Assembly: GCA_025526915.1 (NCBI GenBank)
Contig: JAHLKH010000133.1
Location: forward strand, 1-64,000
DNA length: 64,000 bases
Source: Entophlyctis helioformis
Lineage: Eukaryota > Chytridiomycota > Chytridiomycetes > Chytridiales > Chytriomycetaceae
Reading direction: 5' to 3'
This document shows, piece after piece, positions 14,693-59,495 of the stretch. Made by a program: the position numbers and the translations under genes. Numbering within the stretch: the first letter of the stretch is position 1; the number at the start of each line of letters is the position of its first letter. The notes under the pieces are model-generated. The model worked only from the letters and a program-made list of their open reading frames with translations. It made no database searches and had not been told where the DNA came from.

Positions 14693-16697
14693 TTATGCAG
14701 ATGCACTTCCGGGCGACGAAACGGGCGAAGCAGCAGCAAGGCGTGCGGCAGTGTGCTTGTCGTGCATGAATCGCAGGAAGGGCTCGACACCATACGCAAG
14801 GTAGTGAGCGCGGGGCGTCGACAGAGAGTAGAAGAGGTGGTTGGCGTTCTGCATGGCATTACATGGACGTGGCTGTCAGTTGTCTTTGCAATTGACGAGC
14901 ATGTGTGATGATTGTCTTACAGGAAGCTCAATGTAGCAGAGAGGCGTCTTGACCACCAGCTTGAACGTCTTGGCAAACTCGCGGACATGGGTGATGGGAG
15001 CAAGCGTGTCGCCACGGCCACTATATCCAGAACGAGGCAGCCGGGTCAGTAAAGCGGGATGCAGGGACTGAACGCAGAAGGAAAGACGTACTGGATAATC
15101 ATAAAGGGAGGCAGCTGGAGGCCAGCCTTCTCTTCGGCCGATGACGAGTCAAGGTGCATGCGGGTCTCGGCATCCTTGAGGCGGCGCGTAGGGCTAGCCT
15201 CGCGGAAGAACGCCTCGTCCTGGTCGCCCGACACCTCGCGAGTGAACCACGACTTGAGGTTGAAACCAAAGTGGTTCTTGAAGTTGGTGAGGTCGTAGAC
15301 ACCGCTGATGGCAACAACGGCCTGGACGGACGTGTCGACAGACTCGAAGCCAGGCTGGTACTTGGTCTCGCTGGCAGTGAGGGCAACCATGGTGGCGAGG
15401 TGTGCGCCAGACGAGCAGCCGGCAAGGGCGATGAACGATGCGTCGCCACCGTAAGTGGCGATGTTGGCGCGAACCCAGCGGATGGCACGCTTGACGTCAG
15501 AGATGTGGGTGGGGTAGTTGACATTGGGCGACAGTCTATAGTTGACAGTGACGATCACATAGCGCTTGAGGGCCAGGTAAGGTAGCAGCGGAGGGCGGAC
15601 CTCCTTGGAGCCGCTGCGGTACGATCCACCGTGAATGTAGATCTGCGGGGGAGAGCGAGCGTCAGCCAGGGCAGCGGACAGCAGGCATTCCTGGGCAAGC
15701 AAGCAAGCAGAGATGCGTACGAGAACAGGACGGTTCTTGGGGTAGCTAGGGTGGTGGTAGACATCGAGCGACAGACGGCCCTTGTTCTTTTCGCCAGCCT
15801 CCTCCAGCTCCTCGGCAGTGGCGTAGCAGACTGCAACACAGCAGATTGATGGCAGATCCGGGTGCGGGTGAATAGCGCGGTGTCAGCCAATGTGCACCAA
15901 GACAGCATCCCCAGATACAGAGAGGGCGGGCCGGTGTTGGCCAGCCACGAAGCCACGAAGCCCTGCGGCCGCGCAGCTTGTAGATGTTCATAGCACAGGG
16001 CAGACGGACGGCACCAACGTACTGTTCTCGTGGACGACCACATTGCGGGGGCGACACCTCCCAAAGCGGATTGAGCAGACGGAACCAGAACGAGATGCTG
16101 CGGATGCACGATCATTCCGAGTCCGTGGCGGTTGGCCCAGGCACGGCGTGCAGAGGGGCAGCAGGCGAGGCGGTCGATCAGCCAGCCAGCCAGCCAGCCA
16201 GTCAGCCAGTCAGTCAGTCAGTCAGTCATGTAGGCAGGCAGTCAGGGCACAGGCCAGGCGGTGCCATTGAGCCGCGGAAGGGGGCCGGGCCCGGCAAGAA
16301 GGCCGGGCAAGCAGACATACGTGAAGAAGAGCGGCGGATCGGTCGAAGTAGCGTCTCTGAACTCCTTTGTGCGCTCGTAGATGGGGAAGCGGGCAAAGAA
16401 GGCCTGCAGGAACAGGCCCCACAGCGCGAGCATGAGGGCGATGTCGGTCCAGTAGGCCGCAGCCATGCCGGGCAGGGCAAACAGGCCGCAGGAGCCGGCG
16501 TAGTAGGCCAGAGCGACCTTTGCGAGCAGCAGCGCCTGTGGAAACTCGGTCACGAGCGTGGAGAGCAGGGCCAGACGGGCACGGGACACCTGGCGCGGCA
16601 CGACGGCTCGGACGGCTGGGATGTAGGCAAAGGCCGTGACCAGGCAGATGGCCGTGAACAGGATGTTGACGACGTAGGCGACGCCAAGAGCGAGCAT
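14693..16697 (-). CDS. Membrane-anchored alpha/beta hydrolase (esterase/lipase-like)
   Basis: Six exons: 16697-16321, 16097-16015, 15830-15721, 15642-15092, 15020-14921 and 14848-14693 (1377 bases, 458 residues). Exon 1 encodes several membrane segments (MLALGVAYVVNILFTAICLV; WTDIALMLALWGLFLQAFF). The hydrolase domain follows. It has the oxyanion-hole motif YIHGGSYRSGS, the nucleophile elbow AGCSSGAHLA (Ser in G-C-S-S-G), an acid in HGRGDTLAP and the catalytic His in NANHLFYSL. This is the BD-FAE/HSL-like family order, so a complete Ser-Asp-His triad is present. The substrate is unknown; the N-terminal membrane helices suggest an endomembrane-bound esterase. The border of exon 2 is the least certain (donor GTGCCG chosen by phase). 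The intron between exons 1 and 2 holds a CAGC/CAGT array. Confidence 0.7.
16179..16228. repeat. CAGC/CAGT tetranucleotide array
   Basis: About 12 tandem tetranucleotide units in intron 1 of the hydrolase gene. Confidence 0.9.
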
Positions 16698-26551: not shown

Positions 26552-26623
26552 TCCTCGATGGTCCAGTGGTTAGGATTCCACGCTCTCACCGTGGCGGCCG
26601 GGGTTCGATTCCCCGTCGGGGAG
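26552..26623 (+). tRNA. tRNA-Glu (anticodon CTC)
   Basis: 72 bases. The acceptor stem TCCTCGA pairs with TCGGGGA plus discriminator G. The anticodon arm is CCACG-CTCTCAC-CGTGG, giving CTC (Glu, GAG codons). The T arm is CCGGG-TTCGATT-CCCCG-like. No intron. Confidence 0.95.
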
Positions 26624-34773: not shown

Positions 34774-37700
34774 TCAGACCGACTGCGGCTGGTCGGCATC
34801 ATCCGCAAACAGATCGGGCCGCTGCTCTTTCCAAAACGCCGCCACACTGGCTTCGACTTGGTGCATCTCCTTCCACTTGAGCCACTGCAGCACCTGCCGC
34901 ACGAGCAGCCCCTCCACAGGGATTCCAAGCCGAACAACGCCGGCCGTCGCGACCTCCATGGCCTCGTCGACCCTGCCCCACCACACCAGCACGCGCACAA
35001 ACGTCCATACATCGCGCTCGCTCGGAACACCGCCAATACCGCTGCAGTCTGTCTCGCCGTCCGTCCACTCGGCCCACAACCGGCGCGTGTGGGTCTCGTC
35101 ACGGGCATAGATGCCCATCTGCTCGAGAAGCAGGGCGACAGTGGACGGTGGCACGGACCCTGCGCTCGCAGTCCGGAGCATCGTCCAGATATCAAACAGC
35201 AGGTCACCGCGTCGTTTGTCGGCAATGTGCCGCACGGCAGCGTCCACGAGAGGCCAGTCTGTCCAGGTGCCTGCTTGCAGCGCGTGGTTGAGCAGTGCCG
35301 GTACCGGGTGGGGAGACGGGGCCGCCGCCGATGGCGATGACGGCGTGTCGGTGTCTGACACGGACTGAAACAGACACGTGAACAGGAGCGGAGCCGTTGG
35401 GAGACGCGGCATGATGACATGCGGGCCGTGTTGAAGGATTGTGGCTGTGATGGTGTGAATGATACCAAGAAGCGGAGCGGGGATCTGCGGGGCTACGGGA
35501 GGCGGGGCGATTGCCACGCCGGGCGGTGACGGCGCAAAGCCAGCAGCCCTGAGGGCAACATGGGACGCAGACGCCAGGACCCACGACAGGCTCTCCTCGG
35601 CGTTGATGAGATGGGCTGGGTCGATTGGAGCGGCTGGATCAGCACCCGTAGCGGCGACATGGCGCACAGCATGCATCGTGTCCGCGCGCTTGTTCACCAG
35701 ATCCGCAAGTAGTACCGTGCAGGCGGCCGCAGCGGGCTCCCAGCCGCCAGCCGCCGCATGCACAAACAGCCGCACAAGCCGCGCGTACATGGACCGTTTG
35801 AGTTGCATCACACGCCCGCTCGTGATGTCGCCAACAACGCGCATCAGAGCATCGCCGTCGCCCAGTCGGATACACATCTGCAGCACCGAGACGACTGTGC
35901 GGTCTTCGGGCACCATGCGCGACGCCATCATCGAGTCGTACAGCTGCAGCCCCTGGCTCTCGCGGCCGCGCAGTCCCTTGCACACACGGATGAGCTGCTG
36001 GTACGCCCTGCGGTCGGGCCGGAGGTCCTGCGACCCCAGATTGCCAAACAGCTGGAACGCGGCGCGGTGCTGGCGTTTGCGCATGTACGATGCCATGACG
36101 GTCGAGTACGTGGCGACGTCTGGTGGCGACTTGGCGTCTGCAGAGCCAAAATAGGACTCGAACCAAGCACGGCCGGCCCGCAGACCAAAGGTGCGGAACG
36201 TGTGCTGCATGGGTATGGTGTCGGAGACGAGGGTGCGCACGGCAGATGGGGACACGCCGGAGAGACGCTCAAAGTCCGAGTCAAAGGCGGTCAGGATTCC
36301 GTCGTAGGAGTCGATGGGCAGCATGGATCGGCCCGACTTGGATAGCATGGCAAGGGCATCAACATACGCCGAGCTGCCGATCACATCCATGCTGGACCCT
36401 TGGCTCGATCTGCCGTCGAGATCAGCCTGCTGCTGCGGGTCCGAGTCTCCCATCGCAGGCCGGTCGCCACGAAACTCGAGCAGACCCTGGCGCAGGATGC
36501 TGTATGTGAACGCGTCGGGGTGGTAGCCATTCGATATCATGTAATCAAACCACCGCAGCATATCCGCGAGCTGGCCGCGCCGTGCGTATCCGTGGATCAT
36601 GACGTTGAACACCTGGACGCTCAGACCCGCCTGGCCGTGGATCCATTTCGTGAAAAACGATTCTGCAGCCTCCATTGCAAGCACGTCGCGGCTCTTGGTG
36701 AACGCCGCCAAGAGAGCCACGAGCATCGGCAGGCTTGGCTGCAGGCCGCGGCCAAGCAGCTCGCGAAAGACGGCAAAAGCGTTGTTGGTGTCGGCGTGCA
36801 TGGCATGCGCGTGGATGAGTATCGCGTACACATCGAGGTTGGGCACATGACCGTCGTTGCACATGGACTCGTAAATGCCAACTACACTCTCGCGGTCCTC
36901 AAGGAGGAGGTAGGACCGCATCAGCGCGATATACGTGTCGCGGTCGAGCGGGATGCCCAGGCGGTTGACAAGAGCGTCGATGAGCTCTTGGACGAGCAAG
37001 GCGTCATGGTCGTGTCGGGCTGCGGCAACCAGCATGCGGCGGTAGAGCCGGGCAGAGAGGTTTGGATTGGCCATGCCGGCCAAGTCGAGGCTTTGGAAAA
37101 ACTGTTTTGCTTCTGGGAATCGCGCAGGCGAGGAGCAAAGGTATGCGAGTTTGGCGTTGATGACCTCTGGATTCGAAGCTTCAACAGGATGACGGTCAGC
37201 AAAGTCCTGGATCAGAGATGCAAGGTCTTGGCTGAACGAGGCCGTCGGTGTGTCCATCTGGGTGCCCAGATCTGACTGGTTACGAGCCTGTTGGACAAGA
37301 CGCATGGCGGCTGATGCGACTGCTATCGCGGGAGCGTCTGGAGTGATTGAGTGGGTATGCATGGCGCGTAGGATGATGGCGGCTGTTTGCCATCGATCAG
37401 ACGCAAGGTGCTGGCGAATAAGAGGCGATAGGTGCTGGGCAGCAGAGGCGCCTGTTTCCAGAATTAAGCTGTTGACTGCAGCTGCAATGGCGTCTGCTTG
37501 TGATAAAGAGGTGGTATAGTCGTGTGACGAGGCCGACGGCGGCTCGGTGTGTTGGCGCAGCAGAATGGCGCGAGCCTCTTCGGATAAGAGCAGGTGTTGC
37601 GGCGAGAGGGACGCACCCAGCATTTCCAGCTCCTGCTTGACGATCCAGAAGCGGTCTGCGTTGACACGGTGTGCGTTGATGCCAGGCGTAAGGTCGTCCA

Positions 37701-38532
37701 GAATGGCGCGAAGCCTGTCCATTAATGCAGCGCGATCGACCGCAGGCTGTGGATCGTGAATGTCATGTGCCCTTAAGTCTGCAGATGATAGCTCTGGACT
37801 TTCTTGCTTTGTGGCGAGCGGCGGCTGGATCATGAGAGCGAGAAACGAACGCCAGGCAGCGTCGCAAGTGGCAAGCCGATCCAGCCGGGCATTCGCATCG
37901 GCTGCAGATGAATCGATGGTCGAAGCAGGAGGCGATGGATCTAGAGTGCTGAAATGGCGGATATGCTGCCGTTGAGTGCATGGCTGCTGGTGGCAAGGAT
38001 GCATTGCGAGGGCTGGACGAGCCGAGGCAGCCGAGGCAGCCGAGCAGGACCATCTGGACAGGAAGAAATGTAAGGCACTTGAAAGGCATATGAAAGGCAT
38101 ATGGGCATGTGCAGATGAATGGCGGGAAAGAGAAGAGGCAGAAGAAGCAGAAGAAGCAGAAGAGACCCACCTGCGGGTGTGTATGGATGCGCCAGGTGGG
38201 GCCTGTGCAGTCTGTGCAGCGGATGGATGACTGCGACAAGTGTGCAAGAGTGACGGCAATGGGCGAGAATGCGAGGACGGACACGCAGCGAGCAGCGACG
38301 AGGCGAGCGACAGCAGAAGCACGCCGCTGGGCGGCAGTAGCGAGCGAGCTGCCTGTGATGCAGAAGGTGCAGGCGTGGCATGCGGTGCAGCCGCGGCATG
38401 TGGTGCAAGAGGGGCATGTGGGGCAGGCCGGCCCGTCGACAGTCGGGCCTGAGTGATCTGCGCGGGCGGGCAGCTCCAGAGCAGCGGGTGCAGACACGGC
38501 GTGCGGCAGGAGCGGCGGGCAGACAGAGGCAT
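34774..38532 (-). CDS. Pentatricopeptide repeat (PPR) protein, probably mitochondrial
   Basis: An open frame that reads uninterrupted for more than 1,250 codons. The start at 38532 (MPLSARRSCRTPCLHPLLWS) is chosen because it opens with an Arg/Ser-rich, acid-free leader like a mitochondrial presequence. Other possible starts are the upstream Met at 38769 and MHPCHQQPCTQRQHIRHFST near 38005. The central part carries degenerate 35-residue PPR units, for example DTYIALMRSYLLLEDRESVV, NLDVYAILIHAHAMHADTNN and VQVFNVMIHGYARRGQLADM, then FTYSILRQGL. PPR proteins bind organellar RNA in mRNA maturation or translation. It is convergent with Ku80 (121 bases between stops) and divergent from the guanylyltransferase gene. 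The N-terminal 200 codons are low-complexity and may include an unrecognised intron. Confidence 0.8.
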   Translation of the reverse strand: MPLSARRSCRTPCLHPLLWSCPPAQITQARLSTGRPAPHAPLAPHAAAAPHATPAPSASQAARSLLPPSGVLLLSLASSLLAACPSSHSRPLPSLLHTCRSHPSAAQTAQAPPGASIHTRRWVSSASSASSASSLSRHSSAHAHMPFICLSSALHFFLSRWSCSAASAASARPALAMHPCHQQPCTQRQHIRHFSTLDPSPPASTIDSSAADANARLDRLATCDAAWRSFLALMIQPPLATKQESPELSSADLRAHDIHDPQPAVDRAALMDRLRAILDDLTPGINAHRVNADRFWIVKQELEMLGASLSPQHLLLSEEARAILLRQHTEPPSASSHDYTTSLSQADAIAAAVNSLILETGASAAQHLSPLIRQHLASDRWQTAAIILRAMHTHSITPDAPAIAVASAAMRLVQQARNQSDLGTQMDTPTASFSQDLASLIQDFADRHPVEASNPEVINAKLAYLCSSPARFPEAKQFFQSLDLAGMANPNLSARLYRRMLVAAARHDHDALLVQELIDALVNRLGIPLDRDTYIALMRSYLLLEDRESVVGIYESMCNDGHVPNLDVYAILIHAHAMHADTNNAFAVFRELLGRGLQPSLPMLVALLAAFTKSRDVLAMEAAESFFTKWIHGQAGLSVQVFNVMIHGYARRGQLADMLRWFDYMISNGYHPDAFTYSILRQGLLEFRGDRPAMGDSDPQQQADLDGRSSQGSSMDVIGSSAYVDALAMLSKSGRSMLPIDSYDGILTAFDSDFERLSGVSPSAVRTLVSDTIPMQHTFRTFGLRAGRAWFESYFGSADAKSPPDVATYSTVMASYMRKRQHRAAFQLFGNLGSQDLRPDRRAYQQLIRVCKGLRGRESQGLQLYDSMMASRMVPEDRTVVSVLQMCIRLGDGDALMRVVGDITSGRVMQLKRSMYARLVRLFVHAAAGGWEPAAAACTVLLADLVNKRADTMHAVRHVAATGADPAAPIDPAHLINAEESLSWVLASASHVALRAAGFAPSPPGVAIAPPPVAPQIPAPLLGIIHTITATILQHGPHVIMPRLPTAPLLFTCLFQSVSDTDTPSSPSAAAPSPHPVPALLNHALQAGTWTDWPLVDAAVRHIADKRRGDLLFDIWTMLRTASAGSVPPSTVALLLEQMGIYARDETHTRRLWAEWTDGETDCSGIGGVPSERDVWTFVRVLVWWGRVDEAMEVATAGVVRLGIPVEGLLVRQVLQWLKWKEMHQVEASVAAFWKEQRPDLFADDADQPQSV

Positions 38533-38769
38533 GCGTGGCCGTGGACTGCGTGTGTGCTTATAGGATGGCTGCGTGGCTGCGGTGTGCGTGCTTATAGTAT
38601 CAGAGCCTCTGGTCGGTCGCTGCTGCCGAGTGCTGCCGAGTGCTGCCGAGTGTTGGTCGTGCAGTGGGGCAAGATCCTCTTCCACCGCACTTCGCGACCA
38701 CTTTCCTTGAACGACAACCACAACAGCGACAGCAACGACCATAAAGACCACACCGCCTACGCCCTGCAC
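38533..38769. promoter_or_regulatory. Likely bidirectional promoter, PPR gene / capping enzyme gene
   Basis: Only 237 bases separate the two divergent starts. Contains a threefold direct repeat GCTGCCGAGT at about 38622-38652. No known factor site is assigned. Confidence 0.4.
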
Positions 38770-39183
38770 ATGTCCAGCCCCGCATCACAGCTGGCGCTGC
38801 AGCAGCAACCGCAACACCAACAGCAGCACCAACAGCAGCACCAACAGCAGCACCAACAGCACCAACAGCAGCAGCCGCAGCCGGCCAATGTCCAACAGGG
38901 CCAGCCCCACGGCCAGGCCCAAGGCTCGGGCGCCGTGGCGGTCGGGCTGCCGGTCGAGGCCGCGTACGCTGCCGAGCTGCGTGCAAAGGCCCGCGACCTG
39001 GCCGCCTGCTCGCTGGACGGGTGCGTCTGCCCTTCTGTGTCTGCTTCTGCCCCATCTGCATGCGTCACTGCCGCCGCCACGAGGCAGCCAGCTCGTATCT
39101 GACGCATGTCTGTCTCTTGCTGCCGTCTGTCTCACTGCTGTCTCACTGCTGTCTCACTGCTGCTGCCTCGCCTGCCTCGGTCG

Positions 39184-49619: not shown

Positions 49620-51112
49620 TCACTTGCTCGACGCTTGCAGTTTCTGGATGGTCGTTTCGAGTCGCTTGATGATGAGCTTGTTGGGGTTTCCTCGGTTGAC
49701 TTCATCAAGCAGCGCCTGTGCCCGTGCCAGCGTGAGGCTGCCGAGGAGAATGTTGGCGATCTCGACAGTCTTTGCGCGGTTGAGTGTTCTGGCTTCAAAG
49801 CCGTACCCGTGATCCACCAAGCACTGCATCATCACAGCGTTGCGTTTTTCGCGCAACAGATCGATGGCGCCATGAGATGCGCGGCTGCCCTTGGAGTGCA
49901 TGTACTTGACGACGTCCACATGCCCATTGCTGATGGCGGCATTGAGTGCGTCCGACGTGCACTCTTGACGGCCAGTTTCGTGGAGAAACTGCACCATATC
50001 CAGATGGCCATGTTTTGCAGCATTGGTCATTGCCACTTTCGTGCATCCTTCCGTCCTGTTGGCATGCAGCCACTTGACGATATCAAGGTGGCCGTAGCAA
50101 GCCGCCCGATCAATGGCATTGCGCGTGCATCCTTCTGTCCGATTCTCGTGAAGCCACTTGACGACATGCATATGGTTGTTGGCAGCGGCCCAGTTCATGG
50201 CACGTGTCGTGCATCCTTCCGTTCTGTTGGCATGCAGCCACTTGACAACGTGCAGATGTCCGTTGGCAGCCGCGCAATCCATCGCCTTTGTCGTGCATCG
50301 CGTCACACCGAGATCAAACAAGTACTGCACAACGTCCAGATGTCCGTATTGCGCTGCTTGATCAACTGCGCCGCGCCAGTACTCGCTTGTCGGACCGTGC
50401 TTGGCCATCCAGCGTTGGAGTGTCTTGTACTTGTCGTCGAGATGCTTGAGCAGATCGAGGAATCCAAAGCGGATGGCCATGTGAGTGAGTGTGATCGGAA
50501 ACGAATAGTCGATCAGATCGAACCAGCCGTGGTGCATGGGAATGAGAAGCAGCCGGCGGCTGTCGTGGGTATCGCGATCAAACGATCGAAAGTAGTCGTT
50601 ACGGCATTCGTCGAATACCGAACAGAAGCGCTCGGTGTACCGAGGAAAGCGCTTGCACAGACGGCCGTACATGGAGCGAGAGTGTGCGAGCAGCAGTCCG
50701 TTGTCGGCCCTCAGATAAGAGTCAGGCAGCAGCGCCAGATCGCCCTGCCAGTCCATCTTGAACGCTTCGGTCCACAGCTCAAGCGTCGTCCAGTAGTCGA
50801 TGCGGCGCTTGTCGCCGAGCAGGCCGTTGACGAAGAGGGTGAGCGGGCCGGCTGCCTTGAGGATCATGGCGTGGATCTCGGCGGGCTTGCCGTCCCAGTG
50901 GCTGCGCCGTATGCAAGGTCGCCGCTGGCTGGCGGCACCACATAGCGAGGCACGTCTGGCTGTGCGGTCGTTGCTGCTGGCTGTCCTGGCTGTCCTGGCT
51001 CGACGGCTTGGCTGCCACTCGCTCCAACGACCAGCTCGACCACAGCCGGCTGCTCGTCGCTGGCTGCTGCTGCGTCTGCGTCTGCGTTGTCTACTGTCTG
51101 CGTTGTCGTCAT
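49620..51112 (-). CDS. F-box-like/ankyrin repeat protein ANK1, right copy (one frameshift)
   Basis: Mirror of 6774-8265; ATG at 51112 (MTTTQTVDNADAD). One base is missing near 50907 (CATACGGCGCAGCC against CATACGGACGCAGCC), between the N-terminal part and the F-box-like block. Downstream the frame is open to the stop, including the point near 7698 where the left copy is broken. With the base restored it is 498 codons. The block KPAEIHAMILKAAGP-LTLFVNGLLGD, the middle domain and about seven ankyrin repeats are all present. The segment MDWQGDLALLPDSYLRADNG differs from the left copy (TDWQGDLALLPDAWLMAGNG) by a cluster of changes that stands out against near identity elsewhere. Confidence 0.75.
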
Positions 51113-51265
51113 CGTCACAGCCACTTGCTCGCTTTGTGGTTGTGAGGACAAGATCCACTCGATGCGATCGTCCAACAAGCGCCATTGCAACGAACGAGAA
51201 TGTGGGACATGCACAGACACGGCATGCCACGGTGCACAGTGTGGCTGGAGTGGTAAGCTTGGCGG

Positions 51266-52084
51266 GACACGGCGACGCACACGCTGCGCACCGGATGCAG
51301 GCACCTCTCCACCCCACTGCATGCGTGCTGCGCGACACTGCAGCAAGCGACCAACGCGACCAGCAACGCGATCCTTGCCACAGCCATCATCCACGTCATG
51401 CAAGTCGAGCGATGCATCCACCACATTCATCCCACAACCAGCAGCTGCTGTGACGACTGGCCCTTCAAAGCAACCACTGGCATACTCTACATATCGAGGG
51501 CCGAAGAGGCAGGGTTACCATTCTAGTGAATACGACCATCCCTGTCTCAACAATTCGCCTTCTCTTTTGGTCGCTTCTGTTTTGCTTGTCCCAATGCCAT
51601 GCTCTGTGCACCATGACTTGATCTTGGCAGTTTGCACATGTGCGATCTGTGCTGCATACCATGTTCTTCGATCTCAGAAGCCATCGAACACAAACTCCCC
51701 GATTCCAACGATCCCGCCGCTCTCGCCGCGCTCGGTTACGACGACGATCTTCTGGCTACGTTTAGGACCATCCGAGTATCTACAAGAATCGACCAAGTGT
51801 ACATAACGCTCCTCGGCGGAGGAGTTCTATCCGGTGTTGCGGACATTACAGAGTCTTGGCTCTGTGGTGACCAGCAACAAGTCAATGCACCTGGGGACGT
51901 GCGTCCACTCGCCTCGCGAATGTGCGCATTTCTTCAGGCTGCCCATGGTCTGTTCCAGCTTACGTTATGGATACATCACCGTGGACGTGTCGGACCAGGG
52001 GGATGACATAACTGAGGGATCTACGCACGGCCTAAAGCTCGAAAGGGTATGGCATCTAGTGTCTTTGCGCCTCAATCAACATCT
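51266..52084. other. Right flank of the inverted repeat, with a possible permease-like fragment
   Basis: The plus strand at about 51690-51780 reads EHKLPDSNDPAALAALGYDD then DLLATFRT. This vaguely resembles the start of fungal amino acid/GABA permeases (ALGYxxELxRxF). No membrane segments follow in frame, so at best it is a remnant. The rest is the 3' flank of the esterase-ABCG gene. Confidence 0.25.
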
Positions 52085-55000
52085 TCATTGCTTTCTGCTG
52101 TCATCATCAGCCTGCTTGGCAGATCGGCGAGTGCGACGCAGCCAATGCCACACCTTGGACAACTGCGCATCACGCAAGAGCAGCACAAGTTGCAGGCACC
52201 TGAGCAGCATCCACAGGCCCACAACCACAGCGACAGCCCTGTCTGGACTCATGTGCTCTAGACGCGCTTGCTCAATCACAAGATCGCCAGTGTGCGCACG
52301 ACACTCGGACTGGTCGGCGTCGAGCACAATACAGGTGCCGGCACCTGCCATGGTCGCGCGGATGAGCGGAGAGAGCATCCAGTACATGGGGTTGATGTCC
52401 TGGATCCACGAAACCAGATCGTACAGCGCGGTGTCACCGCGTTTGATCCAGAGGCCAGACGTCATTGTCACGACCGCCTGGAGCAGGAACGAGATGCTGA
52501 GGGCCTCGGGCCGGCTGAGCCGTGTGCCGTAAATGAGCGTGTACAGCGAGACGATGGTGTTGTAGTACATGACGATCAGGGTGATGATCGTGGCGAAACG
52601 GAGTGCTGACCCGGAGACACCTAGCAGCGTGTAGGCGAGGATGCCTGCGATCGTGGCCTCGAGCGACGACGTGGCGGTCTCGTAGATGGTGCGGTGCAGG
52701 AAAAAGGCTGCAAAGTGCACAGAACCGTTTGCGAGATCGTAGTTGAACACATCGCGGTTGTCATAGTAGTCGGATGGGATGCTGATGTTCTTGAGAGCAG
52801 CGAGTCCGATGCATGCTGAGCCACAAGGGTCACGTGTTAGTGTCTGCTTCATGTCCTGCCGTGCCATGTGTTGGCATGCCATTCCATTTGCATGTGTGTC
52901 ACGACTCACCAAGAGCAAGACCCTTGATCTGCAGCGTCAGTGTGATCATGTCGGATCCGGGCCGGCGCTGCAGGAACCCGATAACCAGTGTTGCGCCGAG
53001 CGTGAGGAACAGCATGAACAGCTTGCGCAGGAGGGGACGCTTGCGCCACCATCGCGCGTTGATGACAACCAGCTGGCCGACGGTGCCTATGCGCGGGCCG
53101 TTGTACAGCGACTGGATCGACATAGACACCATGCGGCTCAGCGTCCTCTTGGAAGCAGAGGGTTCTTCGCTCGACGGGTTAGAGCGGGAGTCCTTGTCGT
53201 CGTCCTTGGACATGTCGAGTGTTGAGCGGTCGTCAGAATCGTGGCAGATAGTCGCCGCGAGGCTTTCAACGCCGGATGAAGATGATCGGCCCATGGAGTT
53301 TGTGTGGCAACTGGTGCTCGTTGACCGCGATGCGAACCATGACGAACCGAGCGACACCGCATCGCGGATCTCGGCCTTTGGGATCGCGGCAATGATGTCC
53401 AGGATCGCGTCGGCAGGATTGAGGTATACATCGGCGTTGCCTTGGTCGGCTGCGTCTTGGTCGGCTTGCTGATCGTGCTCGTGTTGCTGTTGGCGATTCA
53501 TGGCAAGCGAGAGCGTGGAGTGACTGCTGGGTGCATGCTGCACGGCCTGAGCGAAGCGGATGCACTCCTGCGGATCGCCCTTGAACAGCAGACGTCCCTG
53601 TGCGAGCAGGATCATGTCTGTGAACAGATCAAAGATCTCGCGACGTGGCTGGTGGATCGAGACGATGATGTTGTATCCCTGCCGCGAAAGCCGCGACAGG
53701 ATGTGCATCACCTCGAGTGACGATCGTGCGTCCAGACCCGATGTCGGTTCGTCTGCAGTGGAGAAGGGGCAAGTGTGAGCAAAGGACGAGATGCAGAGGA
53801 CCTGAAGCAAAACTCACCGAGGATCAAGACACTGGACTGCTTGAGAAGCGCGACAGCAACAGCCATGCGACGCAGCTGGCCGCCAGAGATGCCGCCTTGT
53901 TCTCTGCCGCATCTTGGATCACGACATCAGCACACGATGTGAGACCGAGCAGCTCGAGAATGTGAGAGACGCGTCGCGTGAGTTGTCCAGCTGGAGTGCC
54001 GGCGGGCAGTTCGAGCTTGGCGTAGGACAGCAGAACCTCGGTGGGAGTGAGGCCGGTGAATGGCGGGTTGTGTTGAGGCACAAAACCAACAATGCGCTGG
54101 AACTCCTTCGCCGCCATCTTGGACAGGCGTCTGCCGCCATAGTAGATGTATTGCTCGGCTTCGGGATGCACCGAACGACGTGCGAGCTGGATGTTGAGCA
54201 GTGCACGAGGAGAGTGTCAGCAACACATTCAACCGTTATGCAAAAGCACGAGTCAGCCTACCAGGTTCATCAGCGATGTCTTGCCTGCACCACTCGGGCC
54301 GATGAGAGCCGTCAGCGATCCAGGTGCACACTCAAACGACAGATCGTCCAGAATGGTCTTGACGCTCTTCTTGGCGCTGACCACAAACGTCAGATGGCGA
54401 CACTCGACGGATACGGGTATTGGCTGGAAGTCCATCAGAGAACTAGACATTGCCACATCCGAGCCAATGTTGTTGTTGCGGGCGGTGATGTCCTCGTCCT
54501 CGTCGTCGTCTTCGTCGTCTGCAGACAGCAAAGACGGTTTGGTTGTCTTGAGGGGCTTCTCTTGGAGGAGCAGAAACTCGAGACGCTGCGAGTACCACTT
54601 TGCAAAGACGAGAATGGCGACTTGGACGATGCAGATCAGGATGAGGATCAACCAGAACGTGATCATGATGGGCAGCGAGATGATGGCCGAGTCGGGAAGA
54701 CTGACCGTGACTGGCGGCTCGTATTCGTAGGGAATGGTGTCCATGAGGTCGCAGCGCGACTTGAGGGGGTGGCTTGGCTCAATGACGACGGCCGGTGCGC
54801 TGCTGGCTGATGAGACGACCGTCGGGAACCGTGCGACAGGGAACGCGGTGGCTCTGCCACCGTCGGCTGCGTCAAAGGGAGGCCATGAAGGAACAGGCAC
54901 TGTAGCTGCGAAAGGAGCCGGGATGTTGGGATCGCCATTGTACATCAGATTGGCGGCGTACTGGCGGAAAGCAGCCGACACGCGAGCGCCGTGCGCATCA

Positions 55001-56617
55001 GACGGCGACCGAAGGAACAGCGCAAGATCCGTTGTGTGGCACGCATCGCTGTCGCAGAGCCTGCCAACAGGATCGTCGAACGTGCTCGTCCACGGCGTTT
55101 CCCAAAAGTACGAAAACACACGGGTGGCGTTGGGAGGACTGGGCGAGGCTTGCAGACGACGGACGCTGCGCTGCGGTGCACAGACAAACAGATGGTCCGA
55201 CTCGATGCGTGCAAGACGAGGACCGAAATCGTCGCCAAGAGGGCCGTGGTCCAGTCCCGTGTCGGCGTAGGCACGACGGACGTCTTCGCCGCGACCAGGA
55301 AAGACGGCATCAACGGCAACCGTGTAGATCGGCTGCGGCAAGCCAACTGTAGACATGCTCCTGAGAAAGTACGATGTCTCGTTGGCCGTCGCGCCGAGCA
55401 TGACCTTCAAGCCGGCCATGATGTTGGCATTCTCGAGAATCTGGATGGGGTGCTGTGGGATGACTGTGCCGTCAATCACGGCAGGCAGCGACGTGTCCAG
55501 CGAAGGTGTGTGCGACTTGTCCTTTGCAATGGCCTCGATGGCGTCCAGCAGCTCGCGCGTCGTTTTGGATCGCATGCATGCAGCCAGAGCGGCTGGATCG
55601 GTGCTGGACGTTGCGCACCCGACTCGGCCCGACAGCTCGGTCGTGTCGGCTGTGGCACGGGCTGGAGACCGAAGGGCGACTGCAGGAGGCGACATGAGAA
55701 TGAGGCTGCGGAATCGAGACTTTGTGGTCGGATCGGCCATGTGGACGAGGGCAGACATGGCACCAGCCGACTGGCCGGCGAGCGTCATCCTGGAAGCGTC
55801 GCCGCCGAACGAGCGGATGTTGAAGCGGATCCATTCGATGGCCAAGCGCTGGTCGAGAATGCCAAGATTGACGCCGGAGTTGGCGAGGAGCGAGGAGCCT
55901 GGGAAGCCAAAGATGCCGAGGCGGTAGTTGAGAGTCACGACAATGGACTGCGTGGCATTGGCGAGCTCGGCAGCACGCAGGGCAGGCATGTCGGCGCTTC
56001 CCTGCCATCGTGGCATGCATTGCAGAGCATGAGTGAGGACTTGCAGTTCAACAATACCAAGGTCGCGCGCCACAGCCAAGCGTATTGTGCACACACCTGC
56101 TCGAACGAGCCGCCATGGATGAGCACGAGCACCGGGAGAAGCGCTGCATCGGAGCGAGGCGCAGCAATCGCACCGATTGCATTGGCCGCACGCAGCTGTC
56201 CGGGCGTGCTGAAGGGCGTCCACACGTTGAGCGAGAGGCAGTCCTCGTCCATGTCTTGCGGACAGAACATGGAGACCTGGCGACAGATCTGCGGACAGGC
56301 GGGACGGGGAGTGAGGGCAGAGAACGGCGTTGAGAAGGTGGCCAGGGGTATGGGCTGCGACCAGCGGGCGGCTTGTGCGTAGGGGATGCCGACAAACGAG
56401 AAGCCCTCTGTGGCGGAGCGGCCGCCAGTGATCCTGGATGGGGATATGAACGCGCAGAGTGTGAGCAAGCAGCACTGCCGACCCAGCGTGGAGAGAGCAG
56501 ATGCAAGACGTACATGCCGGCCGCAGCGTCGACGGTGATCATCTCTGTCGGGGGAGGTGCGGCCAGAGCGCTGCCTGCAATGGCAGCCACGGCCACAATG
56601 ATCCGAATGGGCAGCAT
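52085..56617 (-). CDS. Carboxylesterase (type B)-ABCG transporter fusion protein
   Basis: Six exons: 56617-56514, 56433-56097, 56001-54262, 54186-53818, 53752-52910 and 52815-52085. With one base restored near 53896 (GGCGGC read as GGGCGGC) they total 4125 bases, 1,374 residues. In order: a signal peptide (MLPIRIIVAVAAIAGSALAA); a type-B carboxylesterase with oxyanion hole LIHGGSFEQGSA, nucleophile elbow LAGQSAGAMS, Glu in ATANETSYFL and His in DACHTTDLALFL, so the triad is complete; a single membrane helix (IMITFWLILILICIVQVAIL); an ABC ATPase with Walker A IGPSGAGKTSLMNL, signature GGISGGQLRRMA, Walker B VLILDEPTSGLD and switch His VSIHQPR; then an ABCG membrane domain with about six helices. 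The layout recalls yeast Adp1 (ectodomain, helix, ATPase, membrane domain), but with an esterase ectodomain. The phases of exons 3 and 4 join the two halves in one gene. It probably acts at the plasma membrane or a vacuole-like membrane; substrate unknown. Confidence 0.85.
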
Positions 56618-56865
56618 GGTGTTGGGAATGTGTGGTGTGTGGTAACGGGGATGGCTGGCTGGCTGGCCGATGTGTGCGACCTGAGCCCAGACGATGGAAG
56701 CGATGGGGGGTTGACGATCTGAGGGGCCCGTGGAGAGCTGGGGCATCTCGATCATATATGCCGAGACCATCGTGGCGCTCCGCACGGGTCATCGACTTCG
56801 TATGCCCGACCGCCATTGACAAATCAACGGTCGTGGCACTGTTCATTGTTCCATAATCGGCCATT

Positions 56866-57440
56866 GTGCGTGTCGCCAAGCTCCAACGCACGTGGACCAT
56901 CACAGAACACCTCGATCGCTTCCGTTGCGGTCAGGAGGCGGTTGCGCAGGTCTGTGTTCTCGTCGACATCATCCAGCGGCGGCGTGCACGCAAGCTGCCC
57001 ACGCATGCAGCATTCATTGACATCAAGAAGGCATTCGACACGGTGCCGATCGGCGCACTGCTGTGGAAGCTGCACAAGATGGGCATCTCATGCCACGCAC
57101 GTACGAGTTCCTCAAGGCGCTCTACACGTCATCCACCGCATGTGCACGATCAGGCAATGTTCTTGCTGAGCCATTCAGCGTCAGGCGAGGCGTCCGCCAA
57201 GGCTGCCCGCTATCTGGCCTCTTGTTCAACCTGTTCCTCAACGACAGCCTCGATGGTATCCCTGAGATCAGCCATCCCTGCCGTGGCAGACGGCCATGGC
57301 ATCCGTGGGCTGATGTTTGCAGACGATGTGGTCATTCTCGCAGAGTCTCATGCAGCATTGGCAGCCGCTGTGGAAGTCGTGGCGGCATGGGCGGACAAGT
57401 GGCAGATGGCGTTTGGTGTCGACAAGTGTCGCATCACGTC
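56866..57440 (+). mobile_element. Broken non-LTR (LINE) reverse transcriptase fragment
   Basis: Reverse transcriptase motifs appear in order but in two frames. Motif A is AAFIDIKKAFDTVP, motif B is RRGVRQGCPLSGLLFNLFLN and motif C is GLMFADDVVILAES, followed by AAWADKWQMAFGVDKC. At least two frameshifts are needed, so it is dead. It ends at CATCACGTCTTCATTCCAA, a string that also occurs in the 3' flank of ANK1 (about 8322 and 49560). The relic is thus fused to ankyrin-gene flank sequence. Confidence 0.85.
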
Positions 57441-57474
57441 TTCATTCCAACTACGAGCCTTTGCGATCCGTTCA

Positions 57475-59142
57475 TCACGTGCTTGACTCTTGTAGTTTCT
57501 TGATGGTCGACTCGAGTCTCTCGATGGTGGCCTTGGAAGCATTCCTTCGGTTGGCTTCTGCGAGCAGCGCCTGTGCCCGATCGAGTGTGAGGCTGCCAAG
57601 GAGGATGTTGGCGATGTCGGCATTCCTAGCGCATTCGAGTGCTCCGAGCCCAACCGCGTATCCGCAGTCTAGCAAGTACCGCAGCATCTCAATATGACCC
57701 CATCTGACTGCCGTCTCAACAGCATTGCTTGATGCACGAACGCCTTTCGAATGCATGTACTTGACGACGTCCATCTGTCCACGCATGATGGCGGCATCCA
57801 TTGCGGCGGGCGTGCACTCCACTCTGCGGGTCTCGTGGAGCCACTTGACCACATGCAGACGCCCACACTGCACAGCATGTGCCATCGCCTTTTGGGTACA
57901 TCCTTCCGTCCGATTCTCGTGGAGCCACTTGATGACATGCAAATGTCCAAATATCGCCACAGAATTCATCACATAAGCCGTGCATCCTTCCGTTCGATTC
58001 TCGTGGAGCCACTTGACAACGTGCAGATGACCATTTCCAGCAGCGTTATTCATCGCAGCAGTCGTGCATCCCTCGGTCCTGTTGGTATGCAGCCACTTGA
58101 CGACATGTAGATGGCCGTTTCGAGCTGCGCCGTCCATCGCAGAAGTCGTGCATCCTTCCCTTCTGTTCTCGTGTAGCCAGATGACAACATGGAGATGGCC
58201 ATTTCCAGCAGCAGAGTCCATGGCTTCAGTCGTGCATGACACGCCAAGACTAAACAGGTACTGCACAACATCGAGGTGTCCGTATAGGGCTGCTTGGTCA
58301 ACTACGTAGTGCCAGTACGGGGTTGTCGGATCGTGCTTCGCCATCCAGCGTTGGAGAGTCTTGTACTTGTCGTCGAGATGCTTGAGCAAGTCAAGACAGC
58401 CAAAGTATATCGCAATGCGTGCGAGTGCGATCGGATACGTAAAGTCGATCAGATCGAACCAGCTGTGCCGCATGGGAATGAGAAGCAAGCGACTGTGATC
58501 CATATAAACCAGATTGCGCGATTCGTCGTAGGTGTTGTTGGCTGCGTCGTATCCCGCATAGAAGCGCTCGGTTTGCTCAGGAAAGCGCTTGCAGAGACGG
58601 CCGTACATGGAGCGAGAGTGTGCGAGCATCAGTCCGTTGTCGGCCGACAGCCAAACGTCAGGCAGCAGAGCCAGATCGCCCTGCCAGTCCATCTTGAACG
58701 CATCGGTCCACAGCCGCAGTGTGGTTGCTTCGTCGAGTGTGGCCTTGTCGCCGAGCAGGCCGTTGACGAAGAGGGTGAGCGGGCCGGCGTGCTTGAGGAT
58801 CATGGCATGGATCTCGGCGGGCTTGCGGTCCCAGTGGCTGCGTCCGTATGCAAGGTCGCCGGTGGCTGGCGGCACCACATAGCGAGGCACAACTGGCTGT
58901 GGTGTCGTTGCTGCTGCTGCTGCTGCTGCTGCTGTCTTGAGTCGCTTGGCCGGCGGCTGCTCTTGCGGCTGTCCTGGCAACCCTGGCTCGACGGCTTGGC
59001 TGTCACTCGCTCCAACGACCTGCTCGACCACAGCCGGCTGCTCGGCTGTGCTCTGCAGCTGGCTCTGCAGACTGCGCACTTGCTCGTCGCTGGTCGTTGC
59101 TGCTGCGTCTGCGTCGTCTGTCTTTCGTCGCCTCAGCTGCAT
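57475..59142 (-). CDS. F-box-like/ankyrin repeat protein ANK3 (intact)
   Basis: 555 residues from the ATG at 59142 (MQLRRRKTDDADAAATTSDE); the frame stays open a further 29 codons upstream. This is the intact relative of ANK1: KPAEIHAMILKHAGPLTLFV, FKMDWQGDLALLPDVWLS, HSRSMYGRLCKRFPEQTERF, and then nine or so ankyrin repeats of 27-28 residues (GHLHVVKWLHENRTEGCT). The tail is ADIANILLGSLTLDRAQALL. An alanine run and a basic PPAKRLK motif precede the F-box-like block, the latter a possible nuclear signal. It has one to two more repeats than ANK1. It is a protein-binding adaptor by analogy; the 3' end touches a LINE reverse transcriptase relic. Confidence 0.85.
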   Translation of the reverse strand: MQLRRRKTDDADAAATTSDEQVRSLQSQLQSTAEQPAVVEQVVGASDSQAVEPGLPGQPQEQPPAKRLKTAAAAAAAATTPQPVVPRYVVPPATGDLAYGRSHWDRKPAEIHAMILKHAGPLTLFVNGLLGDKATLDEATTLRLWTDAFKMDWQGDLALLPDVWLSADNGLMLAHSRSMYGRLCKRFPEQTERFYAGYDAANNTYDESRNLVYMDHSRLLLIPMRHSWFDLIDFTYPIALARIAIYFGCLDLLKHLDDKYKTLQRWMAKHDPTTPYWHYVVDQAALYGHLDVVQYLFSLGVSCTTEAMDSAAGNGHLHVVIWLHENRREGCTTSAMDGAARNGHLHVVKWLHTNRTEGCTTAAMNNAAGNGHLHVVKWLHENRTEGCTAYVMNSVAIFGHLHVIKWLHENRTEGCTQKAMAHAVQCGRLHVVKWLHETRRVECTPAAMDAAIMRGQMDVVKYMHSKGVRASSNAVETAVRWGHIEMLRYLLDCGYAVGLGALECARNADIANILLGSLTLDRAQALLAEANRRNASKATIERLESTIKKLQESST

Positions 59143-59422
59143 TGTCACGCCTGATTGCTCGCTTTGTGGTTGTCTGGACAACCAACACAAATGACGCGTG
59201 GGAACTTGAGGCATCAACCAACACACCATACCAACAAGCCCATGTCATGGCTGGTGGAGCGTGCTGTGCGGGCTTTTATAGTGAAGTATGCATATCCATG
59301 GAAGGAACACCGCGGCTGTATCGTACTGATGGCAAGCCAATCGAGACATGCTGGATGCAGATCGTTGTGATTCCCGCCAGTCAGCACGGCTCATATACTC
59401 TACCATTTTCGATTTTTCCGAT

Positions 59423-59495
59423 GCCCTCCTAGCTCAGTTGGTAGAGCGTGCGGCTTTTAACCGCAAGGCCGTGGGTTCGAGCCCCACGGAGGGCG
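59423..59495 (+). tRNA. tRNA-Lys (anticodon TTT)
   Basis: 73 bases. The acceptor stem GCCCTCC pairs with GGAGGGC plus discriminator G. The anticodon arm is TGCGG-CTTTTAA-CCGCA, giving TTT (Lys, AAA codons). The T arm is GTGGG-TTCGAGC-CCCAC. No intron. Confidence 0.96.

What the first reader, a model, noticed from the sequence alone, without database searches (positions are those of the whole stretch)
52085..56617. Carboxylesterase ectodomain fused to an ABCG transporter
One multi-exon gene encodes a signal peptide, a type-B carboxylesterase with Ser-Glu-His triad and oxyanion hole, a membrane helix, a complete ABC ATPase and an ABCG membrane domain. The exon lengths close in frame (1,374 residues) once a single base is restored. 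The helix and the start of the ATPase (Walker A) lie in the same uninterrupted 1.74-kb exon as the esterase, so this is not two adjacent genes mis-joined. Topology predicts the esterase outside (or in a lumen) and the ATPase in the cytosol. A plausible idea is coupled hydrolysis and transport of an ester: cleaving a lipid or xenobiotic ester as it leaves or before it enters. Yeast Adp1 has a comparable ectodomain-ABCG layout without an esterase.
Basis: partly seen in the sequence, partly recalled or inferred. Interest (0 to 1): 0.87.

Follow-up and report, generated by a model that had tools for sequence, protein, structure and literature searches.

The report
Esterase fused to an ABCG transporter
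A fungal gene family joins an ester-cutting enzyme on the outside of the cell to a complete membrane pump in a single protein, which suggests a pump that chemically processes its own cargo.

Summary
One stop-free 1,740-base exon of the window encodes most of a type-B carboxylesterase (PF00135, 179 bits), a membrane helix and the Walker A start of an ABC ATPase (PF00005, 26.8 bits, cut-off 25). Further exons add the rest of the ATPase and an ABCG-type membrane domain. The same genome holds two further fused loci: a 96% identical copy (C27) and a diverged paralogue (C258, about 70% DNA identity). C258 is unbroken, with 7 exons and 1,451 aa, and bears both catalytic motif sets. Between window and C258, dS is about 1 and dN/dS 0.28, below 1 in all 8 pieces compared. 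So the fusion is old and kept by selection, not a gene-model artefact. As assembled, the window copy is frame-broken in exon 4. The genome looks like a zoosporic fungus. Coupled hydrolysis and transport of a lipid-like ester is the best reading but is inferred; substrate and direction are unknown. Six paper searches found no such fusion described, but the protein database could not be searched, so its distribution is open.

The parts
56514..56617 (-). Exon 1: start codon and hydrophobic signal peptide (MLPIRIIVAVAAIAGSALA..)
   Evidence: the corresponding part of C258 has a hydropathy peak of 2.46 at residues 27-45
56097..56433 (-). Exon 2: N-terminal part of carboxylesterase with oxyanion-hole motif HGGSFEQ
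   Evidence: PF00135 positions 26-116, 72.7 bits
54262..56001 (-). Exon 3, 1,740 nt open: esterase with Ser (GQSAG), Glu (ANETSYF) and His (CHTTD); then a membrane helix (about 54684-54601), an acidic linker and the ATPase start with Walker A GPSGAGKT
   Evidence: COesterase 179 bits and ABC_tran 26.8 bits in one open reading frame; helix and linker read
53818..54186 (-). Exon 4: ABC ATPase middle (Q-loop FVPQ); frame broken as assembled at the signature motif
   Evidence: the exon is open in L009 and L011
52910..53752 (-). Exon 5: end of ATPase (DEPTSGLDA, SIHQP H-loop, NPADAILD), low-complexity cytosolic linker, first membrane helix of the transporter
   Evidence: 77% identity to C258 over residues 178-250 of the ATPase query
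52085..52815 (-). Exon 6: ABCG-type membrane domain and stop codon
   Evidence: PF01061 40.1 bits, cut-off 26.9; 56% identity to C258 and 92% to C27
52044..56667 (.). Extent of the 96.1% identical dispersed duplicate at C27 (L009:2604-7219); flanking DNA unrelated as far as fetched

Best explanation
It is a real single-chain enzyme-transporter. A signal peptide sends an acetylcholinesterase/lipase-type carboxylesterase to the outside or lumen, one helix anchors it, and a cytosolic ABC ATPase followed by a membrane domain of about six helices forms an ABCG half-transporter that should work as a dimer. Most likely two esterase domains sit over the outer mouth of the ABCG dimer. There they hydrolyse a lipid-like ester (sterol, fatty-acyl or xenobiotic ester) that the transporter delivers, or whose product it takes in. 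Shown: domain order, one reading frame, catalytic motifs, purifying selection on the parts tested. Inferred: surface location, dimer, coupling, substrate class.
For: One open exon spans both enzymes. A diverged paralogue C258 has the same order and an unbroken 1,451-aa frame. Over the pieces compared between window and C258 (8 of 9 pieces, 915 codons, not the whole gene), dS is 1.05, dN 0.29 and their ratio 0.28; by piece 0.23 and 0.25 (esterase), 0.43 (helix and flank), 0.17-0.36 (ATPase), 0.23-0.31 (membrane domain). C258 has S243/E374/H491, HGG 151-153, Walker A 760-767, SGGQ 873, LILDEP 893, SIHQP 927. Ser and Glu align with acetylcholinesterases in all 5 printed PDB alignments, His in the 3 that reach so far; that these are the catalytic residues there is recalled. 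The ATPase's best PDB chain is an ABCG (8wtm, 5.4e-35). In the window copy no K or R precedes the helix closely and several follow it, as expected for esterase outside.
Against: No transcript, protein, localisation or activity data. Three of the four assembled copies (C133, C27, C116) have frame breaks, at different places; whether these are sequencing errors or decay is not settled. C258 versus C116 shows 3 non-synonymous and 0 synonymous changes in the 627 codons compared, too few for a ratio. In C258 two K lie before the helix too, so the charge rule is weaker there. The structure prediction failed (pLDDT 31), so the active site and its place over the transporter are unmodelled. The ABC2_membrane score is modest (38-40 bits), and the PDB match covers the ATPase only. 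The protein database could not be searched. dS near 1 is close to saturation, so the ratios are rough.
Confidence: 0.5

Rival explanations
1. Presentation model, like Dictyostelium TagC: the transporter part serves mainly to bring or expose the enzyme at the cell surface, where the esterase acts on free extracellular substrates; the two activities do not share a substrate.
For: For TagC a paper states that ABC transporter activity is necessary to present its protease domain (PMC3743828, passages). The chain layout here is comparable.
Against: TagC is of the ABCB family with a protease, another enzyme and subfamily. No data on trafficking here.
Confidence: 0.2
2. Anchor model: the ABCG is an ordinary lipid or drug exporter that gained an ecto-esterase as a passenger; the esterase digests environmental esters and is merely tethered.
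For: The same genome has ABCGs with other ectodomains (C52 cysteine-rich, C89 EGF-like, both by my reading; ABC domains) and unfused esterases on C18, so an ectodomain swap is easy to imagine.
Against: The fusion persisted in both paralogue lineages to dS about 1 with all compared parts under constraint, which favours some benefit of linkage.
Confidence: 0.2
3. Gene-model artefact: two adjacent genes wrongly joined, or an assembly chimera.
For: Three of four assembled copies carry frame breaks.
Against: The end of the esterase, the helix and Walker A share one open exon in both the window (1,740 nt) and C258 (1,292 nt), on different contigs and at 57% protein identity.
Confidence: 0.03
4. The window and C27 copies are decaying pseudogenes, and only C258 works.
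For: Each has a frame break as assembled. In one short ATPase piece the two differ by 2 non-synonymous and 0 synonymous changes.
Against: Window versus C27: dN/dS 0.27 over the 932 codons compared (42 synonymous, 35 non-synonymous changes), and in the helix piece, which is out of frame in C27 as assembled, 3 synonymous and 0 non-synonymous changes, so the breaks are recent or are errors.
Confidence: 0.35

Closest known systems
Fungal ABCG7 group / yeast Adp1 (ABCG with EGF-type ectodomain)
   Same: Ectodomain and ABCG in one chain; a group 'characterised by a presence of EGF domain' with unknown function is listed in PMC4692070 (table passage). That Adp1 belongs to it, and its exact layout, are recalled; the word Adp1 does not occur in that text.
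   Different: Ectodomain here is a carboxylesterase with catalytic motifs; no EGF match.
Dictyostelium TagA/TagB/TagC serine protease-ABC transporters
   Same: A serine hydrolase fused to an ABC transporter; TagC's protease acts at the cell surface on a signal precursor (PMC3743828, passages)
   Different: Protease, not esterase; ABCB family, not ABCG.
[quoted passage not shown]
   Same: Another enzyme-like domain fused to a fungal ABC transporter (PMC4692070, passage)
   Different: Different enzyme and subfamily.
Acetylcholinesterase / bile-salt-activated lipase / other type-B esterases (PF00135)
   Same: Sequence family, triad and oxyanion motifs; best PDB kin are acetylcholinesterases, with bile-salt-activated lipase also matched
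   Different: Those are not parts of a transporter (recalled).
ABCG transporters (plant ABCG16 and ABCG25, human ABCG2, ABCG1, ABCG5/8, yeast-type CDR1)
   Same: ATPase before membrane domain; best PDB kin of the ATPase
   Different: No enzyme ectodomain (recalled).

Membership tests
Type-B carboxylesterase (PF00135) | Whole-domain profile match | tested here: met
   262 bits over profile 7-476 of 515 in C258; 179 bits in window exon 3 alone
Type-B carboxylesterase (PF00135) | Ser-Glu-His triad and HGG oxyanion motif | tested here: met
   Motifs in C258, in the window and aligned to acetylcholinesterases (Ser and Glu in 5 of 5 printed, His in 3 of 5)
Type-B carboxylesterase (PF00135) | Ester hydrolysis | not testable with these tools
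   needs an enzyme assay
ABCG transporter | ATPase N-terminal to membrane domain | tested here: met
   ABC_tran 743-900, ABC2_membrane 1164-1362 in C258
ABCG transporter | Closest solved kin by sequence are ABCG | tested here: met
   Top chain is ABCG16 (8wtm), then CDR1, ABCG25, ABCG2; ABCA3 (3.6e-31) ranks above ABCG1, ABCG5 and ABCG8; ABCB are lower; only the ATPase part aligns
ABCG transporter | Complete set of ATPase motifs | tested here: met
   Walker A, signature, Walker B and H-loop present in C258; in the window copy the signature motif is frame-broken as assembled
ABCG transporter | Six membrane helices | tested here: inconclusive
   Hydropathy only: about six peak clusters between 1174 and 1441 of C258; no usable structure model
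ABCG transporter | Dimer and ATP-driven transport | not testable with these tools
   needs experiment
ABCG7/Adp1 group | EGF-type ectodomain | tested here: not met
   Before the helix of C258 Pfam finds only esterase/alpha-beta-hydrolase families
Dictyostelium Tag proteins | Serine protease domain plus ABCB-family transporter | tested here: not met
   COesterase and ABCG kin instead

The most novel reading that the evidence does not exclude
An esterase-gated importer: the ecto-esterase frees the alcohol or acid moiety of a lipid ester (for example a steryl or wax ester of an algal, pollen or other substrate) right at the mouth of an ABCG dimer that then moves the product inward. This would be nutrient processing and uptake in one polypeptide, kept in two old paralogue lineages of a zoosporic fungus.
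Probability: 0.15. Interest if true: 0.82.

Novelty: new variant of a known kind. Interest (0 to 1): 0.6.

Why it matters
Enzyme-transporter fusions are an unusual way to learn what a transporter carries: the enzyme constrains the cargo to something bearing an ester. The fungal ABCG group with an EGF ectodomain is listed as of unknown function (PMC4692070, table passage), and the family described here gives a catalytic handle (mutate the serine) to test cargo processing directly. If coupling holds, it would extend the idea of cargo-processing ABC transporters from peptide signals (Tag proteins) to lipid or xenobiotic esters and to the ABCG subfamily.

Tried and rejected
Rejected: two adjacent genes or a chimeric assembly (one exon, several contigs, diverged paralogue). 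Rejected: the window and C27 copies as alleles of one locus, because only the gene segment is shared and the fetched flanks are unrelated. C258 and C116 (99.3%) are probably one locus assembled twice or two alleles, so I count three loci, not four; that is a judgement.

Led nowhere: structure prediction of window exon 3 with 3 companion rows gave pLDDT 31 and was not used. Scans of viral contigs and genome contigs with one C258 exon found no relative (2 and 12 pattern matches, none confirmed), which says little since the latter holds bacteria and archaea and the former viral contigs. Paper searches for an esterase-ABC(G) fusion: searches listed 0 papers; some searches listed 4, 5 and 1, judged by title and abstract start only, none of them on such a fusion by that look. 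Searches were context searches (fungal ABC inventories, Tag proteins, a guess at the organism, sterol uptake); the guess at the organism gave nothing. PMC4692070 has no occurrence of 'esterase' in its main text. The PF00135 match at window 15370-15660 (47.8 bits) reads as another alpha/beta hydrolase, apart from the fusion.

Dropped from the dN/dS count: the middle esterase piece (1 of 9) for window and C27 because my anchor did not fit them; 4 of 9 pieces of C116; and the stretches outside the anchors, such as the end of exon 4, the acidic linker and the cytosolic low-complexity linker.

Full report
What is there. On the minus strand, from 56617 to 52085, lies one gene of six exons with GT-AG introns. 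Exon 3 (56001-54262) is 1,740 nt without a stop and encodes, in order, an esterase with Ser, Glu and His motifs, a hydrophobic helix, an acidic linker and the start of an ABC ATPase with Walker A. Pfam scores both enzymes above their curated cut-offs in this single exon: COesterase 179 bits (27) and ABC_tran 26.8 bits (25). None of 2,000 Markov sequences of the same composition was open. Exon 6 scores as ABC2_membrane, 40.1 bits. The exon sum is 4,124 nt, and as assembled the frame breaks in exon 4 at the ABC signature motif. I treated the pieces of this copy apart.

Relatives in the same genome. The genome held is 29.6 Mb in 482 contigs. PF00135 gives 13 matches, which I assign to: the window gene (2), C27 (2), C258 (2), C116 (2), two tandem genes on C18 (4), and one other hydrolase piece in the window (1). 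PF01061 gives 32 matches, among them C27, C133 and C258 next to their esterases. C27 is 96.1% identical to window 52044-56667; no other part of the 9.9 kb fetched matches the window at E 1e-10. C258 matches the window gene in five stretches of 68-71% DNA identity, and C116 is 99.3% identical to C258 over 5.3 kb, up to its contig end. In C258 the seven exons join without change into 1,451 aa with COesterase 262 bits, ABC_tran 91 bits and ABC2_membrane 38 bits in order; it too holds the end of the esterase, the helix and Walker A in one exon of 1,292 nt. The two tandem C18 esterases show no ABC part in the 9.9 kb read; the exon compared is 29% identical to the window exon.

Selection. All 8 pieces of window versus C258 are below 1: esterase N-part 0.23, esterase C-part 0.25, helix and flank 0.43, ATPase 0.18, 0.17 and 0.36, membrane domain 0.23 and 0.31. 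The ninth piece (middle esterase) was not compared there. C258 versus C116 has 3 non-synonymous and 0 synonymous changes in 627 codons, too few to weigh. The fused frame has therefore been kept since before the two lineages parted. dS near 1 is rough. The frame breaks: window in exon 4, C27 around the esterase tail, helix and linker, C116 in the ATPase part. Yet in the helix piece the window and C27 differ by 3 synonymous and 0 non-synonymous changes, so if that break is real it is recent. Sequencing error is the simpler reading, but it is not proved.

Enzyme parts. In C258: HGG at 151-153, Ser 243 in GQSAG, Glu 374, His 491; Walker A 760-767, SGGQ at 873, LILDEP at 893, SIHQP at 927. In the five PDB alignments printed Ser and Glu face Ser and Glu of acetylcholinesterases in all five; His faces His in the three that reach so far, in a stretch of low alignment confidence. 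The ATPase's best PDB kin are ABCG16, CDR1, ABCG25 and ABCG2; ABCA3 comes before ABCG1, ABCG5 and ABCG8; only the ATPase aligns. Hydropathy at threshold 1.3 shows a signal-peptide peak (27-45), one peak at 645-663 and about six clusters between 1174 and 1441, and also marginal peaks inside the soluble domains at 170-190 and 877-895. The charges around the helix (none positive just before it in the window copy, several K and R after it; in C258 two K before it as well) fit esterase outside and ATPase in the cytosol. Structure prediction failed.

Organism. Chitin_synth_2 gives 36 matches, best 689 bits (the family also rings in 4 of 14 prokaryote controls), and the radial-spoke family gives 4 matches, best 225 bits (0 of 14 controls, which hold no eukaryote and so say little). 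That radial spokes mark flagellated cells is recalled. This fits a zoosporic (chytrid-like) fungus; the species is not identified.

How it most likely works. A dimeric ABCG with two ecto-esterases at its outer face, acting on an ester that passes or whose product passes through the transporter. Shown: architecture, motifs, constraint. Inferred: location, dimer, coupling, cargo. The sterol or fatty-acyl ester idea rests on esterase kin (acetylcholinesterase, bile-salt-activated lipase) and on sterol uptake being among the listed roles of fungal ABCG1-5 (PMC4692070, table passage); that yeast Aus1 and Pdr11 are the sterol importers is recalled, and the listing was seen only as titles and abstract starts. 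The rivals are a TagC-like presentation role (PMC3743828, passages) and simple tethering.

Novelty. Ectodomain ABCGs, enzyme-ABC fusions and this esterase family are each known. An esterase-ABCG fusion was not found in six searches of the paper library, but subscription papers and the protein database were out of reach, so the architecture may already sit in annotated proteomes without comment. I rate it a new variant of a known kind.

Noticed in passing
window 49623-51386 and 57478-59244, minus strand: Two similar ankyrin-repeat open frames (WLHENRTEGC-type repeats) flank the fusion gene on both sides.
   Followed up: partly
window 56857-57483, plus strand: A reverse-transcriptase fragment (RVT_1, 50.7 bits) lies directly upstream of the gene.
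   Followed up: partly
window 52044-56667 versus L009:2604-7219: The 96% duplicate begins and ends within about 50 bases of the gene, and an upstream GGCT-type tandem repeat differs in length between copies; how such a tight dispersed duplication arose is unexplained.
   Followed up: partly
L011:887-1351, minus strand: Downstream of the C258 copy lies a small ORF weakly like Polyketide_cyc2/lipid transport (26.6 bits, just below the 27.4 cut-off).
   Followed up: no
L010 (C18:156500-166400): Two tandem unfused esterase genes with apparent signal peptides lie before a myosin-like ORF (my reading), with a chitin synthase match about 2 kb further on.
   Followed up: no
L013 (C52) and L015 (C89): Other ABCG-like genes of this genome with different ectodomains: cysteine-rich on C52, EGF-like on C89, both by my reading (ABC2_membrane_7 94 and 50 bits).
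   Followed up: partly
window 15370-15660, minus strand: A second alpha/beta-hydrolase piece in the window (COesterase 47.8 bits), with an HGGSY motif, not linked to a transporter as far as read.
   Followed up: no
window 34777-38784, minus strand: A 1,336-codon open frame with pentatricopeptide repeats.
   Followed up: no
window 26552-26623 and 59423-59495: Two tRNA genes.
   Followed up: no
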